Shown here piece by piece: positions 14,171 to 40,843 of a stretch of 40,843 nt of DNA; the stretch's first letter is position 1; each line of letters begins with the position of its first letter. Made by a program: the position numbers and the translations under genes. A model generated the notes under the pieces. The model had not been told where the DNA came from and made no database searches. It saw only the letters and a program-made list of their open reading frames with translations. Source of the stretch: Oscillospiraceae bacterium (GTDB lineage Bacteria; Bacillota; Clostridia; Oscillospirales; Oscillospiraceae); contig JAFTTQ010000144.1 in NCBI GenBank assembly GCA_017466665.1, positions 1 through 40,843 of the forward strand, written 5' to 3'.

Positions 14171-14199
14171 TTGAATATTCATATATTCTGTGTTATTAT
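14171..14199 (+). promoter_or_regulatory. Promoter of the OLE-like RNA
   Basis: TTGAAT (14171-14176), a 17-base spacer and TATTAT (14194-14199) predict a transcript start near 14206, matching the 5' side of the closing helix of the RNA. Confidence 0.65.
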
Positions 14200-14205
14200 T
14201 CATAC

Positions 14206-14820
14206 TGACGGTGCAGTATCCTAGTCAGAATGACCGGTTCCCAGGTAGGGCCTAAAAATCCTATGAAGGGCATATCGATGAAGTCCGTGGTGCCTGCTTT
14301 TTACGCCCAGTTTAGGGTGGGTGCTGGGGGTTAAGGATCCCGGGCGCACTCCAATGGCATGGAGTATACGACCCGGTTTCCGTGGAGACCTGGTGTTGTG
14401 CGACGGTGGTAAGTTCCCGATTGCTCGGGGCCCACTCGCGTACGAGCCTGGTAAGAACCTGCAAGGTGGTGCGCAGAATCGCGTTGCTACGTGCAGTGTA
14501 GCCTGCCTTGAGTGAACATGTGGGGAAAGGGGAACATACAGAATAAAGCAGTGTATAGGCTTTTTCTGTTATCGCTCCTGGAAACCATGCTTGCAAAAGA
14601 GGCTAAGAACCGGAACGTTTTGCAGTGGAAAACACCTAGGCTGTCGTAACTGGGCAGACAGGGGATTACAGTACGGACTAAGTGGCAATCGGGTACCCAT
14701 TTTTTTGGCAACACTTGGGCAAGTGGATCAAATGGAAACGGCCTGTACGGCAACGGCAGGTTCTGCTTGGGGAAAACCAACCCGACCTAAGCCGTAAGAT
14801 TTATCCTGTCTGCTACCGTT
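14206..14820 (+). ncRNA. ole: OLE RNA (ornate, large, extremophilic) candidate
   Basis: About 615 bases without a credible gene and far more GC-rich than nearby intergenic DNA. The two ends pair: ACGGTGCAG (14208-14216) with CTGC-T-ACCGT (14810-14819), giving a closed RNA of the known OLE size (about 610 nt). Many local stems are visible, for example AATGGCATGGAGT and the GGGGCCCACTC region. Its own promoter lies upstream, and a four-helix OapA-like protein followed by dxs, tlyA, nadK, argR and recN lies downstream; this is the established neighbourhood of OLE RNA, a large membrane-associated RNA studied mainly in Bacillus halodurans. Identification rests on size, closed ends and context; I could not run a covariance search. 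ORFs inside it on both strands are chance. Confidence 0.85.
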
Positions 14821-14849
14821 TTAAAATACTTAAAAGGAGATAGACAAAC

Positions 14850-15437
14850 GTGTCTAAGTCCGACCCAGCTTCATCCAAAAAAGAGCGAAATAAAACGATC
14901 CGTTGGGTCGTAACCATTTTTATTGTTACCATATTTATCTCGGGATTTATTTCCTTTGCCTCCACTGAAATTATGGAAGCCAGCTCTGTACTTGTGGCTT
15001 TTATTATATTATTTGTCATTATTTTCATTGGTATTATTTTTGATGTGATCGGTGTGGCGGTTACATCTGCCGATGAAAAGCCCTTTCATTCTATGGCTGC
15101 CCGGAAGGTTCCCGGCGGTCACGAAGCCATTTCATTGCTGCGGAATGCTGAGCGTGTCAGCTCCATCTGCAATGATGTGATTGGCGATATCTGCGGTGTT
15201 GTGTCCGGTTCTGCGTCTGCCTCCATTGCAGCCCAGATCATCGTGAATTTTTCAGGCAGCACCGGCGAGATCATTATGCTTTTAATGTCGGCAATGGTTG
15301 CCGGCTTGACGGTGGGCGGCAAAGCAATCGGTAAGACCTTTGCCATCGGTTCCTGCACCAAGATCGTTTCAGGTGTTGGCAAGGTGATTTGGTTTTTCCA
15401 CAATATCCCGTCATTCCTTAAGAAAAGAAATAGTTAG
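14850..15437 (+). CDS. oapA: OLE-associated protein OapA-like membrane protein
   Basis: A 195-aa membrane protein with helices at about residues 19-37, 45-71, 117-135 and 137-156. It has a basic N-terminus (SKKERNKTIR), a basic C-terminus (FLKKRNS) and a charged central loop containing SADEKPFHSMAARKVPG and RNAERVSSICNDVIGDICGV. Size, topology and position (directly after the structured RNA and before dxs) match OapA, which binds OLE RNA and anchors it to the membrane. The GTG at 14850 follows AAGGAG (14833-14838) by about 11 bases. It stops with TAG, 11 bp before dxs. Confidence 0.82.
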   Translation: MSKSDPASSKKERNKTIRWVVTIFIVTIFISGFISFASTEIMEASSVLVAFIILFVIIFIGIIFDVIGVAVTSADEKPFHSMAARKVPGGHEAISLLRNAERVSSICNDVIGDICGVVSGSASASIAAQIIVNFSGSTGEIIMLLMSAMVAGLTVGGKAIGKTFAIGSCTKIVSGVGKVIWFFHNIPSFLKKRNS

Positions 15438-21145: not shown

Positions 21146-21406
21146 GATATGTAACACCTTGATGGGAAAAAGTATGCAGGTATTCTTTTTTCAGAGAGCC
21201 TTCGGCTGGTGGGAGAAGGTAGGGAAGTCTGCAAAAATACATCCCGGAGTGGCTTGCCTGAAAATACAGTAGGGCAGGACGGGTGCGCCCGATAACGCGC
21301 GGCGTTTTGTAACGCACTGAGGGAAATGCCGCGAGGTATTTCCAAATTTGAGGTGGTACCGCGTAATTTTTACGCCCTCTGTCTTTACAGGCAGAGGGCG
21401 TTTTTT
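21146..21406 (+). promoter_or_regulatory. T-box leader, tyrosine specificity
   Basis: Stem I landmarks AGAGAGCCTTCGGCTGGTG (21193-21211) and GGAGTGG after the specifier loop are present. The specifier region AAAATACATC places UAC (21238-21240) as the codon, meaning tyrosine. The antiterminator T-box core TGGTACCGCG lies at 21354-21363; its UGGU fits the A73 discriminator of tRNA-Tyr. The terminator CGCCCTCTG...CAGAGGGCG with TTTTTT lies at 21373-21406. Uncharged tRNA-Tyr should stabilise the antiterminator and switch on the M28 peptidase and tyrS genes. Confidence 0.95.
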
Positions 21407-35789: not shown

Positions 35790-35817
35790 TTGACTTTTAG
35801 TATATTTGTGATATAAT
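35790..35817 (+). promoter_or_regulatory. Promoter of the cobalamin-riboswitch operon
   Basis: TTGACT (35790-35795), a 16-base spacer and a perfect TATAAT (35812-35817). The predicted start near 35824 lies just before the riboswitch. Confidence 0.8.
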
Positions 35818-35829
35818 TGTGGCAACGAA

Positions 35830-36126
35830 AATTAAATATTTGTTCCGTGGCCGGGGTGATCGCAAGACGACTTCTCGGCTGAACAAGATAATGGGGTGCA
35901 AATCCCCGCGCTGCCGGCGCTGTAAGTGTCGAGATAGCCTGCCGTTGACGAAAGTCAGTCATTGGATTTTTTCTGAGAAGGCAGACAGGTTATCGTTTGA
36001 GACACAAGTCAGAAGACCTACGGAACTATATTTTCCTCTTTGCACCCGTGCGATGGGCAAAGGGCGCTTGTGTTACGCAGAAAAACGGCTGCGGCAGTAT
36101 TGAATTACTGCCGCAGTTTTTATTTT
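35830..36126 (+). promoter_or_regulatory. Cobalamin (B12) riboswitch with intrinsic terminator
   Basis: The core reads GGGGTGCAAATCCCCGC (35894-35909), then GCTGCCGGCGCTGTAAG, matching the conserved GGGTGaaAATCCC...CCCGCCACTGTAA stretch of the cobalamin family. The B12-box-like AGTCAGAAGACCTAC lies at 36007-36021. The expression platform is a strong terminator, CTGCGGCAGTA, loop, TACTGCCGCAG, TTTTTATTTTT (about 36091-36126). Binding of cobalamin should favour termination, so downstream genes are expected to be on when B12 is scarce. Confidence 0.93.
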
Positions 36127-36140
36127 TGGGAGTGCAGTTT

Positions 36141-36326
36141 GTGAGACCGTCAAGACAGAATATGTTTCAGGCAGTAATCAACCGTATGGTTCACGAGGCA
36201 TTAATGCAAAAGCATGAAGCCTTTGTACTGGATCATCAGTATGATACGGATGAGCAGTTTTACAATACTCCCTCTAAATTGAATCAAACGGACGAGAAAG
36301 AAAACAACATTTGCGTAATAGAATAA
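36141..36326 (+). CDS. Small hypothetical protein (61 aa), first ORF after the B12 riboswitch
   Basis: A 61-aa ORF starting at GTG 36141 with GGGAG (36128-36132) about 8 bases upstream, directly after the riboswitch terminator. It reads MRPSRQNMFQAVINRMVHEA and then a polar, acidic tail rich in His, Asp and Asn (EAFVLDHQYDTDEQFY). There is no signal peptide or membrane segment. I recognise no family. It may be a true small protein, a leader peptide or a chance ORF; its place makes it the first gene controlled by the riboswitch. Confidence 0.5.
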   Translation: MRPSRQNMFQAVINRMVHEALMQKHEAFVLDHQYDTDEQFYNTPSKLNQTDEKENNICVIE

Positions 36327-36331
36327 AACAC

Positions 36332-36426
36332 TGCGGCTGATTGCCCTCGTGCCGCAGATAGCAGGCATTGGATTCCCCCAAGCCGTAGATTGGGGCACCG
36401 GTCAGAAAGACAGCCGGTGCCCCAAA
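36332..36426 (+). repeat. Two hairpins between the 61-aa ORF and the DUF4430 gene
   Basis: CTGCGGC/GCCGCAG (36332-36358) and the strong GGGGCACCGG/CCGGTGCCCC stem (about 36393-36424). Neither is followed by a T-run, so they are probably not terminators. The second ends about 15 bases before the Shine-Dalgarno of the next gene and could affect mRNA processing or translation. Confidence 0.6.
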
Positions 36427-36451
36427 ACCAACAATGATGTGGAGAATGAAT

Positions 36452-38254
36452 GTGAAAAAGACACAGCTGATTTACAAGTCCATCGCAGCATTGCTGTTTA
36501 TAGCATTGGTGATTGGGATGGTTAGCTTGTGCAGCGGTTTGCGTCATAAGCCGCCGCAAGGATTAGATGCTGAAATACAGGAAATCAATCCAGAGGCAGA
36601 TTTGCCGGTACCCAATGGATCAAGCGAGAATGCAAAGCAACCGGAACTTTTGGAAACAGAACCGCCTGAAACAGACCCACCGGAAACAGAACCGTCCGAA
36701 ATGGAGCCTAATACAACTGATCCGGAAGAAACCCTGCCGGAGGATACAACCGAGCCGGATTCTTCTTCGGGCAATAATGATACTGAAGAAGGCGGAGAAG
36801 GCGTGCTGCCGGGGGATGGGCCGGAGGATGACAGCGAACTTGAATTTATAACAAGCTTGAAAAGCAAGTATACATACGACCAGCTTGAACATGATACTGT
36901 TTTCTTTACTGCTCATTTGAACAATGGCGGGGATTTAACTTTGCGTGTAAAGCTGTATAACAGTCAAACACCTCAAAACGGACAGACTTTGACCGGTGAC
37001 GGTAACAATTATCAGGCTGTATTGTGCCGCAATGAAACAAATTTTTTCACCTTTTATGCAAAGGATGGCGGTGTAACGGTAGATGAAATCACGATCCCTG
37101 TTCAATATGTGGCACGGTTAGCGGATGAAGATAATCCCACAATCGGCGAAAATCCGCCTGTCATTGTTACCAATTTGCAGGGCGTGGAAAAGTTGAGCAA
37201 CCGAAACTTTACTCTGACGGTACAGGCAACGGCATATACAGGCAGCACGCTGTATTCCAGCAATATTGAGGTTATGCTGGATGGAGAACGCATCACCGGA
37301 CCTACCGGTGGCCCCGTCTATGAATATCAGCTGTATTTCAAAGACCCGGAGGTTGGCGATATTGTCCATCATACGGTAACCGTCTGTGCATGGGACAATA
37401 AAGGAAACTCGACGTTTGTAGCCTATAACTTTGACTATCAATTTGTGGATACCGGCGGTGAGATCGGCACGGCCTATATCATTTTGGATATGACCACGGT
37501 TGGCCTTGGTATTGTGGATGAACCTTATACTTACCGAATCAAGCAGAATATGCCGGCCTCCTATGCGGTTATGGAAATGCTGACGGAGTACGGCTATGAA
37601 TTCACCTATGCTGGCACGCCGGATGTAGGCTTCTATCTGCGCCGGATCCACAGCGGCGGTATGATGGATTATTCGGATATCCCGGATAATCTATGGAACA
37701 AGGTGCTGCAGGATCAACTGAGCTTGACCGGGCAGTATGATCACGACAGTCTTGGCGAATTTGACTTTACCCAGGGCTCCGGTTGGATGTACTCCGTCGG
37801 CGGAACGGTTTATGCAGGTAAGGGTCTATCAACCTACTTCCTGAATAACGGTGATACGCTGTATTTGCGATTCACCTTGGCATACGGAAAGGATATCGGT
37901 GGATACTCCTCCACGGGAGGAGCTTTCGGCGTGCTTCCCACCTATTGCGGCAAGTGGATCAATGACACGTATATTGATATGCATCAGTGGGGGGAAGCCA
38001 CAGTTACCATAGAGCCGACCTGTACGCAGGATGGTGAAATGAGCTGCGTATGCTCGGTCTGCGGAGATATGAAGGATACTGTTTCTATTCCGGCTTTGGG
38101 GCATAGTTACTATGAAGTCAGCCGAACCGAGCCTGCCAATGGAAACGACGGTTTTGTGCTTTACGAATGTGAGCACTGCAAGGAAGAAAAGAAGGAGACA
38201 ATCCTATGGAAGGAAGAAACCACCATACCGCCAGAACCTACACAAACCGGGTAG
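36452..38254 (+). CDS. Surface protein with DUF4430 (transcobalamin beta-domain-like) module
   Basis: A 600-aa exported protein. An N-terminal signal/anchor helix lies at about residues 8-28, then a Pro/Glu/Thr-rich stalk (about 40-105, with ETEPPETDPPETEPSE repeats). Two Ig-like beta domains (about 130-330) precede a DUF4430 domain (about 340-485) holding MPASYAVMEMLTEYGYEFTY, GSGWMYSVGGTVYAGKGLST and NNGDTLYLRFTLAYGKDIGG. DUF4430 is the fold of the small C-terminal domain of vertebrate transcobalamin/intrinsic factor. A CxxC-containing C-terminal repeat follows (CVCSVCGDMKDTVSIPALGH, about 530-576). I use the GTG at 36452, 7 bases after TGGAG. It sits under the B12 riboswitch and overlaps the next gene by 49 bp. 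Confidence 0.85.
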   Translation: MKKTQLIYKSIAALLFIALVIGMVSLCSGLRHKPPQGLDAEIQEINPEADLPVPNGSSENAKQPELLETEPPETDPPETEPSEMEPNTTDPEETLPEDTTEPDSSSGNNDTEEGGEGVLPGDGPEDDSELEFITSLKSKYTYDQLEHDTVFFTAHLNNGGDLTLRVKLYNSQTPQNGQTLTGDGNNYQAVLCRNETNFFTFYAKDGGVTVDEITIPVQYVARLADEDNPTIGENPPVIVTNLQGVEKLSNRNFTLTVQATAYTGSTLYSSNIEVMLDGERITGPTGGPVYEYQLYFKDPEVGDIVHHTVTVCAWDNKGNSTFVAYNFDYQFVDTGGEIGTAYIILDMTTVGLGIVDEPYTYRIKQNMPASYAVMEMLTEYGYEFTYAGTPDVGFYLRRIHSGGMMDYSDIPDNLWNKVLQDQLSLTGQYDHDSLGEFDFTQGSGWMYSVGGTVYAGKGLSTYFLNNGDTLYLRFTLAYGKDIGGYSSTGGAFGVLPTYCGKWINDTYIDMHQWGEATVTIEPTCTQDGEMSCVCSVCGDMKDTVSIPALGHSYYEVSRTEPANGNDGFVLYECEHCKEEKKETILWKEETTIPPEPTQTG

Positions 38255-39381
38255 CGTCTTTGTTGTTGGCGCTTGTATTGGTTGTAGTGACACCGCTGAC
38301 GGTGTTTGCAAGTTCCCAAGACCCCTTGCAGGCGTTGGCAAAGAAGGTCGGCTGTGCCTATGAGGACATCTTAACATCCGATCTGGTGATCCCCGGCGAA
38401 TCCGTATCCGATTGGATCGCCATAGCTACCGGCTGCTCCGGCAATCCCGTCAAGCGTAACGCCTACCTGAAAGGTCTGGAAGCTTATGTGACGGCGGAAT
38501 ATGAGAAAAACGGTTGCCTTCACAATATTAAGGCGACGGAATATCACCGGATCAGCTTGGCTGTGCTGGCACTGGGCGGTGATCCGACCTGCTTTGGCGT
38601 AGACAGCTCCGGCAATCCCATCAACCTGATTGCGGAAGGAACTTATAATTGGAGCAATTCGGATTCCCTCGGGATGCAGGGCCTCAACGGATGGATTTTT
38701 GCATTGATCACCTTGGATGCTAAGTGTTACGATGTGCCGCCTGATGCTGTTTATACCAGAGAGGACATCGTTGCTGCCATTTTGGACGCACAGACGGAGG
38801 AGGGCGGCTTTGGTCTGTCCGGTGGAGCATCGGATGTAGACATTACTGCCATGACCTTGCAGGCGTTAGCACCTTACTATCATAATGATGTGAATGTACA
38901 AAGCAGTGTAGACAGAGCTCTTGGCTGGCTGTCGGCACAGCAAAGCGACAGCGGTGATTTTACCAGTTGGGGCGAAGGTACAGCGGAAGGAACGGCACAG
39001 ACTGTGATCGCATTGTGCAGCCTTGGAATTGACCCCAGAACAGATGCACGATTCATCAAAAACGGTCACTCAGCCATGGATGGTCTTTTGCAGTATCAGA
39101 CCCAAAGCGGTATGTTCAAACACACCCTTGACGGTGATGAGGATGTTATGGCCACCGAGCAGGCGGCATTGGCGCTGATCGCTGTGCAGCGCCTGGATCA
39201 GGATGGAAACCGCATATATGATTTTACGGAAATTGCGGTTTATGAAGGCGAAGACGATCCGGTATCTGAAAAGAACCCCACAGACACTGGCGTTTGGATC
39301 GCTGTTGCAGCAAGTGCTGTTTTGGTTACAGGCGGCACAGTTGTCGTGTTTATGAAGAGAGGAAAGAAAAAGCATGTATGA
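38206..39381 (+). CDS. Surface protein with prenyltransferase-like alpha/alpha barrel (transcobalamin alpha-domain-like)
   Basis: A 391-aa exported protein. Its signal peptide is SLLLALVLVVVTPLTVFASS (about residues 17-36). A helical-repeat domain (about 40-345) of the terpenoid-cyclase/prenyltransferase toroid type follows, with repeats such as RISLAVLALGGDP, GLNGWIFALITLDAK, EEGGFGLSGGASDVDITAMT and GTAQTVIALCSLGIDP. The large domain of transcobalamin/intrinsic factor has this alpha6/alpha6 barrel. The C-terminus has a sorting-signal-like end: NPTDTG (about 357-362), a 20-residue hydrophobic stretch and KRGKKKHV. AAGGAG lies 8 bases before the ATG. It overlaps the DUF4430 gene by 49 bp and moxR by 8 bp, so translation is tightly linked. 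Confidence 0.88.
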   Translation: MEGRNHHTARTYTNRVASLLLALVLVVVTPLTVFASSQDPLQALAKKVGCAYEDILTSDLVIPGESVSDWIAIATGCSGNPVKRNAYLKGLEAYVTAEYEKNGCLHNIKATEYHRISLAVLALGGDPTCFGVDSSGNPINLIAEGTYNWSNSDSLGMQGLNGWIFALITLDAKCYDVPPDAVYTREDIVAAILDAQTEEGGFGLSGGASDVDITAMTLQALAPYYHNDVNVQSSVDRALGWLSAQQSDSGDFTSWGEGTAEGTAQTVIALCSLGIDPRTDARFIKNGHSAMDGLLQYQTQSGMFKHTLDGDEDVMATEQAALALIAVQRLDQDGNRIYDFTEIAVYEGEDDPVSEKNPTDTGVWIAVAASAVLVTGGTVVVFMKRGKKKHV

Positions 39382-40312
39382 AGTAACGGAAAAAATTATC
39401 CGGGAAGTAAAAAAGGTCATCGTCGGTAAGGACGAGGTAGTAAGCAAGATCTGGACTGCGATCCTTGCCGAGGGACATGTACTGCTGGAGGATGTACCCG
39501 GTGTCGGCAAAACCACGATGGCGTTGTCCTTTGCCAAGGCACTTGGACTGGACGAAAAGCGTGTCCAGTTTACACCGGACACGATGCCCTCTGATATTAT
39601 TGGCTTTTCTGTATTTGATAAAGAGAAGCTTGTCTACCAGCCCGGTGCGGTTATGACGAATCTGTTGCTGGCGGACGAGATCAACCGTACCTCCAGTAAA
39701 ACCCAGTCGGCACTGCTGGAAGCAATGGAAGAAAAGCGGGTCACCGTAGATGGGGTGACCCATCCGCTGCCGGCTCCCTTTGTGGTATTGGCAACTCAAA
39801 ACCCGGTCGGCTCTGCAGGCACCCAAAACCTGCCCAATTCCCAGCTTGACCGCTTTATTATGAAGCTGCAAATGGGTTATCCTGACCTGAAAAGCCAGAT
39901 CGACATCTTAAAAGATCGTGGGCATGGAAATCCCCTGGATCAAGTGGAGCCGATCATGACCCGGGAGGAACTGGTACATACCATTCAAAAGGTAGCGGAT
40001 GCCCACATTGCCGACAGCGTATATGACTATATTGCCAGACTAGCCGAGGCGACTCGGAATCATCGTATGATTCAGCTTGGTGTCAGCCCCCGTGGTGCAC
40101 TGGCTCTTTGCCGGGTGGCGAAGGCCCGCGCCTTTGTGAATAAGCGGGATTTTGTTACCCCGGAGGATGTAAAGGCATCGGCAAAGGATGTGTTTGCCCA
40201 CAGACTGATTTTGTCCTCTAAGGCTAGGCTGAATGATTACAACGCAGAAATGCTGGTGGACGAGATCCTAACAAGCACCGCATTGCCTGCAATTACGGAG
40301 AAGAATCTATGA
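39374..40312 (+). CDS. MoxR-family AAA+ ATPase
   Basis: A 312-aa MoxR-type AAA_3 ATPase. Walker A is in LLEDVPGVGKTTMALSFAKA, Walker B in NLLLADEINRTSSKTQSALL, sensor 1 in VVLATQNPVGSAG, with a C-terminal lid domain (LGVSPRGALALCRVAKARAF). MoxR proteins are thought to act as chaperones that mature or activate partner proteins, usually with DUF58 and von Willebrand or transglutaminase partners. It starts within the end of the alpha-barrel gene and overlaps the DUF58 gene by 4 bp, so it belongs to the same operon as the B12-regulated surface proteins. Confidence 0.95.
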   Translation: MYEVTEKIIREVKKVIVGKDEVVSKIWTAILAEGHVLLEDVPGVGKTTMALSFAKALGLDEKRVQFTPDTMPSDIIGFSVFDKEKLVYQPGAVMTNLLLADEINRTSSKTQSALLEAMEEKRVTVDGVTHPLPAPFVVLATQNPVGSAGTQNLPNSQLDRFIMKLQMGYPDLKSQIDILKDRGHGNPLDQVEPIMTREELVHTIQKVADAHIADSVYDYIARLAEATRNHRMIQLGVSPRGALALCRVAKARAFVNKRDFVTPEDVKASAKDVFAHRLILSSKARLNDYNAEMLVDEILTSTALPAITEKNL

Positions 40313-40843
40313 GCCTTCTGCTATGGCTGCTGTGCCTAGGTGCATTGGCAGCGGCGAATCTTTTGGTACCACACCCTGCGCTGATAGCAGTGATGGTGCT
40401 GTTTGTGGCGGCTCCTGTGGTTTCCTGGCTGATCTTGATGCTGCTTCGTAAGAGGGTACGCATTTGTTTGACAGCACCCGGTGTTGTTGCTAAAAACAAG
40501 ACATTCTTACTTCAAGCCCAGCTCGAAAGCGACACAGCCCTGCCTTTTGGAAAAACGGTTATGTGGCTGCAGCTTACCAATGCGGTTACCGGAGAAACTG
40601 GGCGCAAACGGGTATCCTTCCGCAGAGAGGGCGAGTGGGTGCTGGAAAGCGCCTATTGTGGCTGCATCGAATGTCGGGCGACAAACGCCTGGTGCTACGA
40701 TATTTTCGGTGTTCTGCCGGTTCGGATCGGCTGCAAAGCTAAGAAACGAATCGTGGTTATGCCGGATACCTTCCCAGTTGAAATAGAAACGGTTTTGACT
40801 CGCAGCAATCAGAACGACTGTACAGAGTACGCATCGGATAAAA
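40309..40843 (+). CDS. DUF58 protein, N-terminal part (cut by window end)
   Basis: The frame is open from ATG 40309 to the last base (about 178 codons). Two N-terminal membrane helices (LLLWLLCLGALAAANLLV and LIAVMVLFVAAPVVSWLIL) are followed by a beta-rich domain ending in the family pattern ESAYCGCIECRATNAWCYDIF...VVMPDTF. DUF58 proteins are the usual partners of MoxR ATPases; the characteristic C-terminal VWA-like part lies outside the window. Its ATG overlaps the moxR stop (ATGA). A transglutaminase-like gene often follows in such clusters but cannot be seen here. Confidence 0.9.
   Translation, partial: MSLLLWLLCLGALAAANLLVPHPALIAVMVLFVAAPVVSWLILMLLRKRVRICLTAPGVVAKNKTFLLQAQLESDTALPFGKTVMWLQLTNAVTGETGRKRVSFRREGEWVLESAYCGCIECRATNAWCYDIFGVLPVRIGCKAKKRIVVMPDTFPVEIETVLTRSNQNDCTEYASDK

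What the first reader, a model, noticed from the sequence alone, without database searches (positions are those of the whole stretch)
35790..39381. B12-riboswitch-controlled, two-protein transcobalamin-like surface system
Seen: a promoter, a cobalamin riboswitch with terminator, then two overlapping genes for exported proteins. One carries a DUF4430 domain (fold of the small beta domain of human transcobalamin/intrinsic factor) on a Pro/Thr stalk. The other is an alpha/alpha toroid (fold of the large alpha domain) with a sorting-signal-like C-terminus. Known: vertebrate B12 carriers grip cobalamin between exactly these two domains. Inference: this Gram-positive gut-type bacterium makes a split transcobalamin at its surface, switched on when B12 is scarce, to capture corrinoids from the environment. 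I do not recall an experimentally described system of this split, riboswitch-linked form, but could not search for one.
Basis: partly seen in the sequence, partly recalled or inferred. Interest (0 to 1): 0.93.

Follow-up and report, generated by a model that had tools for sequence, protein, structure and literature searches.

The report
Split bacterial transcobalamin, B12-riboswitch controlled
Behind a stretch that matches the vitamin B12 riboswitch model, this bacterium (probably a gut clostridium) carries two adjacent genes whose products are predicted to have the folds of the two halves of an animal B12 carrier, and they likely catch B12 at the cell surface for a B12 importer; whether they bind B12 has not been tested.

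The parts
35790..35817 (+). sigma-70-type promoter, TTGACT-16-TATAAT
   Evidence: 11 of 12 consensus matches; weak alone
35829..36039 (+). cobalamin riboswitch aptamer RF00174
   Evidence: 51 bits, E 5.7e-10, model 1-189
36087..36128 (+). intrinsic terminator (probable expression platform)
   Evidence: 13-pair stem 36087-36118 plus tail; z -3.97 for 36060-36130
36434..38254 (+). P1: surface protein with N-terminal hydrophobic anchor, Pro/Thr/Glu stalk, Ig-like region, DUF4430 domain and Cys-containing tail; probable start GTG 36452 (600 aa)
   Evidence: anchor, stalk and tail read by eye; the Ig-like reading rests on weak matches
37442..37885 (+). DUF4430 / transcobalamin-beta-like domain of P1
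38206..39381 (+). P2: alpha/alpha toroid with signal peptide and C-terminal hydrophobic anchor
   Evidence: signal peptide and anchor read by eye
39374..40312 (+). MoxR-type AAA+ ATPase, same operon
   Evidence: PF07726 E 1.4e-54; order P1-P2-MoxR kept in many relatives
40309..40842 (+). N-terminal part of a DUF58-type protein, cut by the contig end; probably continues on contig C63
   Evidence: no Pfam match for this fragment; PF01882 on the C63 part

Best explanation
This is likely a B12-starvation operon whose first two genes, behind a cobalamin-riboswitch sequence, encode two proteins that are predicted to have the folds of the beta and alpha domains of animal transcobalamin and that likely capture corrinoids outside the cell for an ECF importer of the CbrT type. 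Inferred working: when adenosylcobalamin is scarce the riboswitch would let transcription pass the terminator. P1 (N-terminal anchor, long stalk, DUF4430 domain) and P2 (C-terminally anchored toroid) would then sit on the outer membrane face, hold a corrinoid between the toroid mouth and the DUF4430 domain, and hand it to the ECF S component, probably through the small DUF4430 protein made with EcfT/EcfA. MoxR, DUF58 and the transglutaminase-like membrane protein would assemble or mature this surface complex. Shown: the riboswitch match, the gene order and its recurrence, the domain folds (as predictions), the similarity of three S components to CbrT, and natural toroid-DUF4430 fusions. Not shown: B12 binding, the P1-P2 contact, the hand-over, and the role of the MoxR module.
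Confidence: 0.7

Rival explanations
1. The surface proteins do serve corrinoid uptake, but P1 and P2 do not form one pocket with each other: P2 pairs with the small DUF4430 protein of the ECF part, and P1 has its own ligand or role (for example tethering).
For: In ECF-type loci the toroid is usually followed directly by the small DUF4430 protein and EcfT, and the two natural fusions L042 and L049 join the toroid to the small type. P1's DUF4430 is divergent.
Against: In MoxR-type loci P1 and P2 stay adjacent even where their order is swapped (L024, L090).
Confidence: 0.3
2. The ligand is not intact B12 but a precursor or relative (cobinamide, other cobamides). This overlaps with the best explanation.
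For: Burroughs et al. word it as B12 or its precursors. Riboswitch control fits any corrinoid source.
Against: The best solved relative of the three S components tested is in 6FNP, a cobalamin importer, but their specificity was not tested.
Confidence: 0.3
3. P2 is a terpene cyclase or prenyltransferase-like enzyme, as public annotation of a relative says ('terpene cyclase/mutase family protein').
Against: The residue aligned with the last Asp of DxDD (alignment) is I/V/L/M in 99 of 103 aligned toroid domains and Asp in 1. The protein looks exported and anchored (by eye). It sits beside DUF4430 and cobalamin riboswitches.
Confidence: 0.05
4. The operon builds an adhesive or sensing surface structure and the riboswitch only couples it to B12 status, as a niche signal, without corrinoid binding.
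For: MoxR-DUF58-transglutaminase next to a multidomain surface protein recalls the bifidobacterial PFNA cluster, linked there to adhesion and cytokine binding (PMC8430577, passages). Giant proteins carry propeller-type, SLH or dockerin domains.
Against: Co-occurrence with CbrT-like S components and EcfT/EcfA and the transcobalamin-like fold.
Confidence: 0.12

Closest known systems
Bacterial transcobalamin-like SLBB (DUF4430) surface proteins with alpha/alpha toroids, Burroughs et al. 2007 (PMC1796856; abstract and passages seen)
   Same: Secreted SLBB domain plus toroid, low-GC Gram-positive bacteria, operons with CbiO/CbiQ-type genes, predicted B12 scavenging; a propeller-fused SLBB protein is also named there.
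   Different: They describe fused toroid+SLBB proteins and second paralogous SLBB proteins. The passages I saw do not describe a separate toroid gene beside a DUF4430 gene; the word riboswitch does not occur in the main text (0 hits). MoxR, DUF58, transglutaminase and dockerin were not among my search terms there.
Animal transcobalamin, intrinsic factor, haptocorrin
   Different: Two separate, apparently membrane-anchored bacterial proteins; joint pocket not shown.
ECF-CbrT cobalamin transporter (PMC5997447; passages seen)
   Same: Three S components from these systems have a 182-aa chain of 6FNP, taken to be CbrT, as best solved relative.
   Different: In L. delbrueckii CbrT occurs in nrdJ-cbrS-cbrT-pduO; no surface capture proteins appear in the passages seen.
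Bacteroides BtuG/BtuH surface B12-binding lipoproteins (PMC6143338, PMC8941943; starts of abstracts in search listings only)
   Same: Surface capture of B12 by gut bacteria ahead of an importer.
   Different: Gram-negative outer-membrane systems (recalled); no fold comparison with P1/P2 was made here.
Bifidobacterium PFNA cluster pkb2-fn3-aaa(MoxR)-duf58-tgm (PMC8430577; passages)
   Same: Surface protein followed by MoxR, DUF58, transglutaminase.
   Different: No kinase gene seen here; riboswitch, DUF4430 and toroid instead.

Membership tests
Cobalamin riboswitch RF00174 | covariance-model match above the gathering score | tested here: met
   51 against 31.5 bits, full length
Cobalamin riboswitch RF00174 | expression platform (terminator) between aptamer and gene | tested here: met
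Cobalamin riboswitch RF00174 | cobalamin binding and gene control | not testable with these tools
   needs in-line probing or a reporter
Transcobalamin-type SLBB / DUF4430 (P1) | profile match PF14478 | tested here: inconclusive
   window 18.2 bits, below 23.8; 29 of 32 alignment members match at E<=0.1, best 3.9e-8
Transcobalamin-type SLBB / DUF4430 (P1) | beta-grasp fold of the transcobalamin beta domain | tested here: met
Transcobalamin-type SLBB / DUF4430 (P1) | beta-hairpin insert after the helix with a conserved aromatic | tested here: met
   strands 53-57 and 65-70 after helix 39-49 of the model; Tyr401 invariant in the 32 and 49 aligned sequences; equivalence to the contact residue is inferred
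Animal transcobalamin / intrinsic factor / haptocorrin | toroid and beta domain in one chain | tested here: not met
   two genes; fusions only in relatives
Animal transcobalamin / intrinsic factor / haptocorrin | Cobalamin_bind profile PF01122 on the toroid | tested here: inconclusive
   window 13 bits, below 25; 9 of 28 alignment members at E<=0.1, best 2e-4
Animal transcobalamin / intrinsic factor / haptocorrin | the two domains face each other around one cobalamin | tested here: inconclusive
   not reproduced in the L049 fusion model, pTM 0.58, rmsd about 21 A; P1 with P2 was not co-folded
Animal transcobalamin / intrinsic factor / haptocorrin | binds cobalamin | not testable with these tools
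   needs purified proteins
ECF B12 transporter (CbrT type) | S component homologous to CbrT with the pair | tested here: met
   L010, same run as P1-P2, E 2.6e-8; in the window's own genome E 4e-11 but on contig C74, C63 ends inside EcfA
Class II terpene cyclase | DxDD motif | tested here: not met
   DVDI in P2; 1 of 103 aligned toroid domains has the last Asp
PFNA cluster | MoxR-DUF58-transglutaminase order | tested here: met
   window plus C63, relatives
PFNA cluster | Pkb2 kinase first gene | tested here: not met
   no gene of that size between riboswitch and P1

The most novel reading that the evidence does not exclude
Gram-positive gut bacteria build a modular extracellular corrinoid-capture machine, a 'corrinosome'. 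It is a split transcobalamin whose halves are separately anchored or, in relatives, carry dockerin tags (DUF4430-dockerin proteins directly behind B12 riboswitches), held together with giant propeller-type proteins by cohesin-dockerin or SLH contacts and matured by a MoxR-DUF58-transglutaminase module. All of it is switched on by B12 shortage and feeds a CbrT-type ECF importer; animal transcobalamin would be a fused, streamlined descendant of such a pair.
Probability: 0.2. Interest if true: 0.85.

Novelty: new variant of a known kind. Interest (0 to 1): 0.64.

Why it matters
If right, gut Firmicutes compete for B12 with surface proteins built from the same two domains as the host's own carriers, which would explain how Gram-positive auxotrophs scavenge corrinoids and give the 2007 idea of a bacterial origin of animal transcobalamin a directly testable, riboswitch-linked system. 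It would also correct public labels such as 'terpene cyclase' on toroids of this kind, and give the MoxR-DUF58-transglutaminase module a concrete client.

Tried and rejected
Terpene cyclase reading of P2: rejected on the missing DxDD, apparent export and context, although the toroid alone aligns best to cyclases. Sortase signal on P2: no LPXTG (by eye); only 1 of 28 alignment members matched PF00746. Sequence searches of the PDB with P1, P2, their profiles and the small DUF4430 protein found no transcobalamin, and with the L049 fusion only a meaningless one at E 0.64; the fold search did. A shared pocket was looked for in the natural fusion L049 and not found. Paper searches listed no experimental description of this system in the held library; subscription papers are not covered and not every listed paper was opened. 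Plasmid collection: 3 records with a match. Relatives: P2 found at E<=1e-30 in 13 of 60 genomes searched, own included, so the operon is patchy.

Rows dropped or limits: 80 of 343 related loci were held. 44 of those 80 were scanned with Rfam; in 8 of the 44 the cluster starts within 300 bases of the contig end and could not show a riboswitch. L090-L092 were scanned later: L090 has a riboswitch (40.1 bits), L092 none, L091 is the same contig as L024 and was not counted twice. The background rate (92 hits in 39 genomes, 83.8 Mb) includes 3 hits below the cut-off and the loci's own riboswitches, and 5 of the 44 scanned loci lie in genomes not among those 39. The P1 profile includes stalk, Ig-like and tail parts and some 'fused' cases are weak matches, so the 74 of 80 is an upper figure. 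The Vescimonas riboswitch-like hit (28.7 bits) is below the cut-off.
Full report
What is there. The window carries, on the + strand, a promoter (35790-35817), a full-length cobalamin riboswitch (35829-36039; RF00174, 51 bits, E 5.7e-10), a terminator (36087-36118), then P1 (36434-38254, probable start GTG 36452) and P2 (38206-39381), overlapping by 49 bases. They are followed without a gap by a MoxR ATPase and the start of a DUF58-type protein, where the contig ends.

The operon goes on. The start of contig C63 of the same genome overlaps the window's last 28 bases with 3 mismatches and continues the DUF58 protein (probably strain variation in a metagenome assembly). Relatives keep the same order. 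C63 then has a transglutaminase-like protein (PF01841 E 1e-20), a second cobalamin riboswitch (62.5 bits), a 1997-aa surface protein with a PQQ/propeller-type and a cadherin-like match, a small DUF4430 protein (PF14478 E 4e-18), an EcfT-like protein (no Pfam match itself; its L010 relative matches CbiQ) and the start of an EcfA-type ATPase. The third cobalamin riboswitch of the genome (C74) directly precedes another small DUF4430 protein and an ECF S component. So 2 of the genome's 3 cobalamin riboswitches stand directly before a DUF4430 gene, and the third before the giant gene that a DUF4430 gene follows.

P2. An alpha/alpha toroid (PF00432 in 28 of 28 alignment members; Cobalamin_bind in 9 of 28, best 2e-4) with a signal peptide and a C-terminal membrane anchor by eye. 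The DxDD motif of class II cyclases is DVDI here; the last position is I/V/L/M in 99 of 103 aligned toroid domains.

Context across genomes. Of 343 relatives of P2 found in GTDB genomes, 80 loci were held. In 74 of 80 a DUF4430-type match is adjacent (71) and/or fused (21); 51 hold an EcfT match, 27 MoxR, 72 one or the other (the P1 profile also covers other parts, so 74 is an upper figure). Two classes appear: P1-P2-MoxR-DUF58-TGase-giant as in the window, and toroid-sDUF4430-EcfT-EcfA, often with an S component. L010 joins both in one run behind one riboswitch. L015 likewise has sDUF4430-EcfT-EcfA before P1, with the riboswitch 11 kb upstream on the same strand; its S component was not identified. 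In 44 loci scanned, 25 have RF00174, always upstream and on the toroid's strand; the genome-wide rate predicts 0.75. No TPP, FMN or other cofactor riboswitch reached its cut-off in these scans. In the P1-P2-MoxR class, 6 of 12 testable scanned loci have it within the locus, and L015 and L035 farther upstream behind same-strand genes; L016, L022, L033, L038 do not show one. The pair stays adjacent where its order is swapped (L024, L090).

Transporter link. Three S components were compared with the PDB: the best match of each is a 182-aa chain of 6FNP (E 4e-11, 2.6e-8, 1.6e-9). 6FNP is ECF-CbrT, shown to import cobalamin (PMC5997447, passages); that this chain is CbrT itself is my reading from its size and match.

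Pocket test. Two relatives fuse toroid and small DUF4430 in one chain (L042, L049). The L049 model (pLDDT 84) makes Foldseek rank transcobalamin, intrinsic factor and haptocorrin as the 15 best hits (E 2e-9 to 5e-7), as both domains match in order, but the domains are not placed as in transcobalamin (rmsd about 21 A, pTM 0.58). Two long helices, by eye transmembrane, separate them. So the shared pocket is neither shown nor excluded.

Known and new. Burroughs et al. 2007 already predicted that bacterial SLBB+toroid surface proteins scavenge B12 and gave rise to animal transcobalamin. What I add: the genetically split pair behind a cobalamin riboswitch, the statistics of that link, the CbrT-type S components, the MoxR-DUF58-transglutaminase module (seen before beside a surface FN3 protein in bifidobacteria), and dockerin domains on giant proteins and on DUF4430 proteins directly behind riboswitches in relatives (L041, L043, L048). 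Vescimonas fastidiosa strain MM35 has the same operon, annotated DUF4430 - terpene cyclase - MoxR - DUF58 - transglutaminase - dockerin, preceded by cohesin and dockerin genes and, about 14 kb upstream of its P1 homologue, a sub-threshold riboswitch match (28.7 bits). A named strain is the most useful place for a test.

Verdict. Observation confirmed; interpretation right in kind, incomplete in extent, and unproven in its central step (joint corrinoid binding).

Noticed in passing
window 14192-14835 +: OLE RNA (RF01071, 418.5 bits), followed by an ORF 14850-15437 with hydrophobic stretches.
   Followed up: no
window 21150-21382 +: T-box leader (RF00230, 132 bits).
   Followed up: no
window 36390-36425: GC-rich inverted repeat (GGGGCACCGG...CCGGTGCCCC) just upstream of P1, after the terminator and without a T tail on the + strand; seen by eye.
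   Followed up: no
window 36161-36326 +: Possible short reading frame between terminator and P1; not examined.
   Followed up: no
L093 4280-23679 (Vescimonas fastidiosa pMM35_02): Cohesin and dockerin genes before the P1-P2 operon, and a dockerin on the giant protein.
   Followed up: partly
L041 8607-9542, L043 597-1562, L048 3232-4080: DUF4430-dockerin proteins as the first reading frame behind a cobalamin riboswitch.
   Followed up: partly
own genome C39, C27, C95, C47: Three dockerin and seven cohesin matches in the window's own genome, not on the window or C63.
   Followed up: no
window end 40816-40843 / C63 start: 28-base overlap with 3 mismatches between contig ends, suggesting strain variation in the assembly.
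   Followed up: partly
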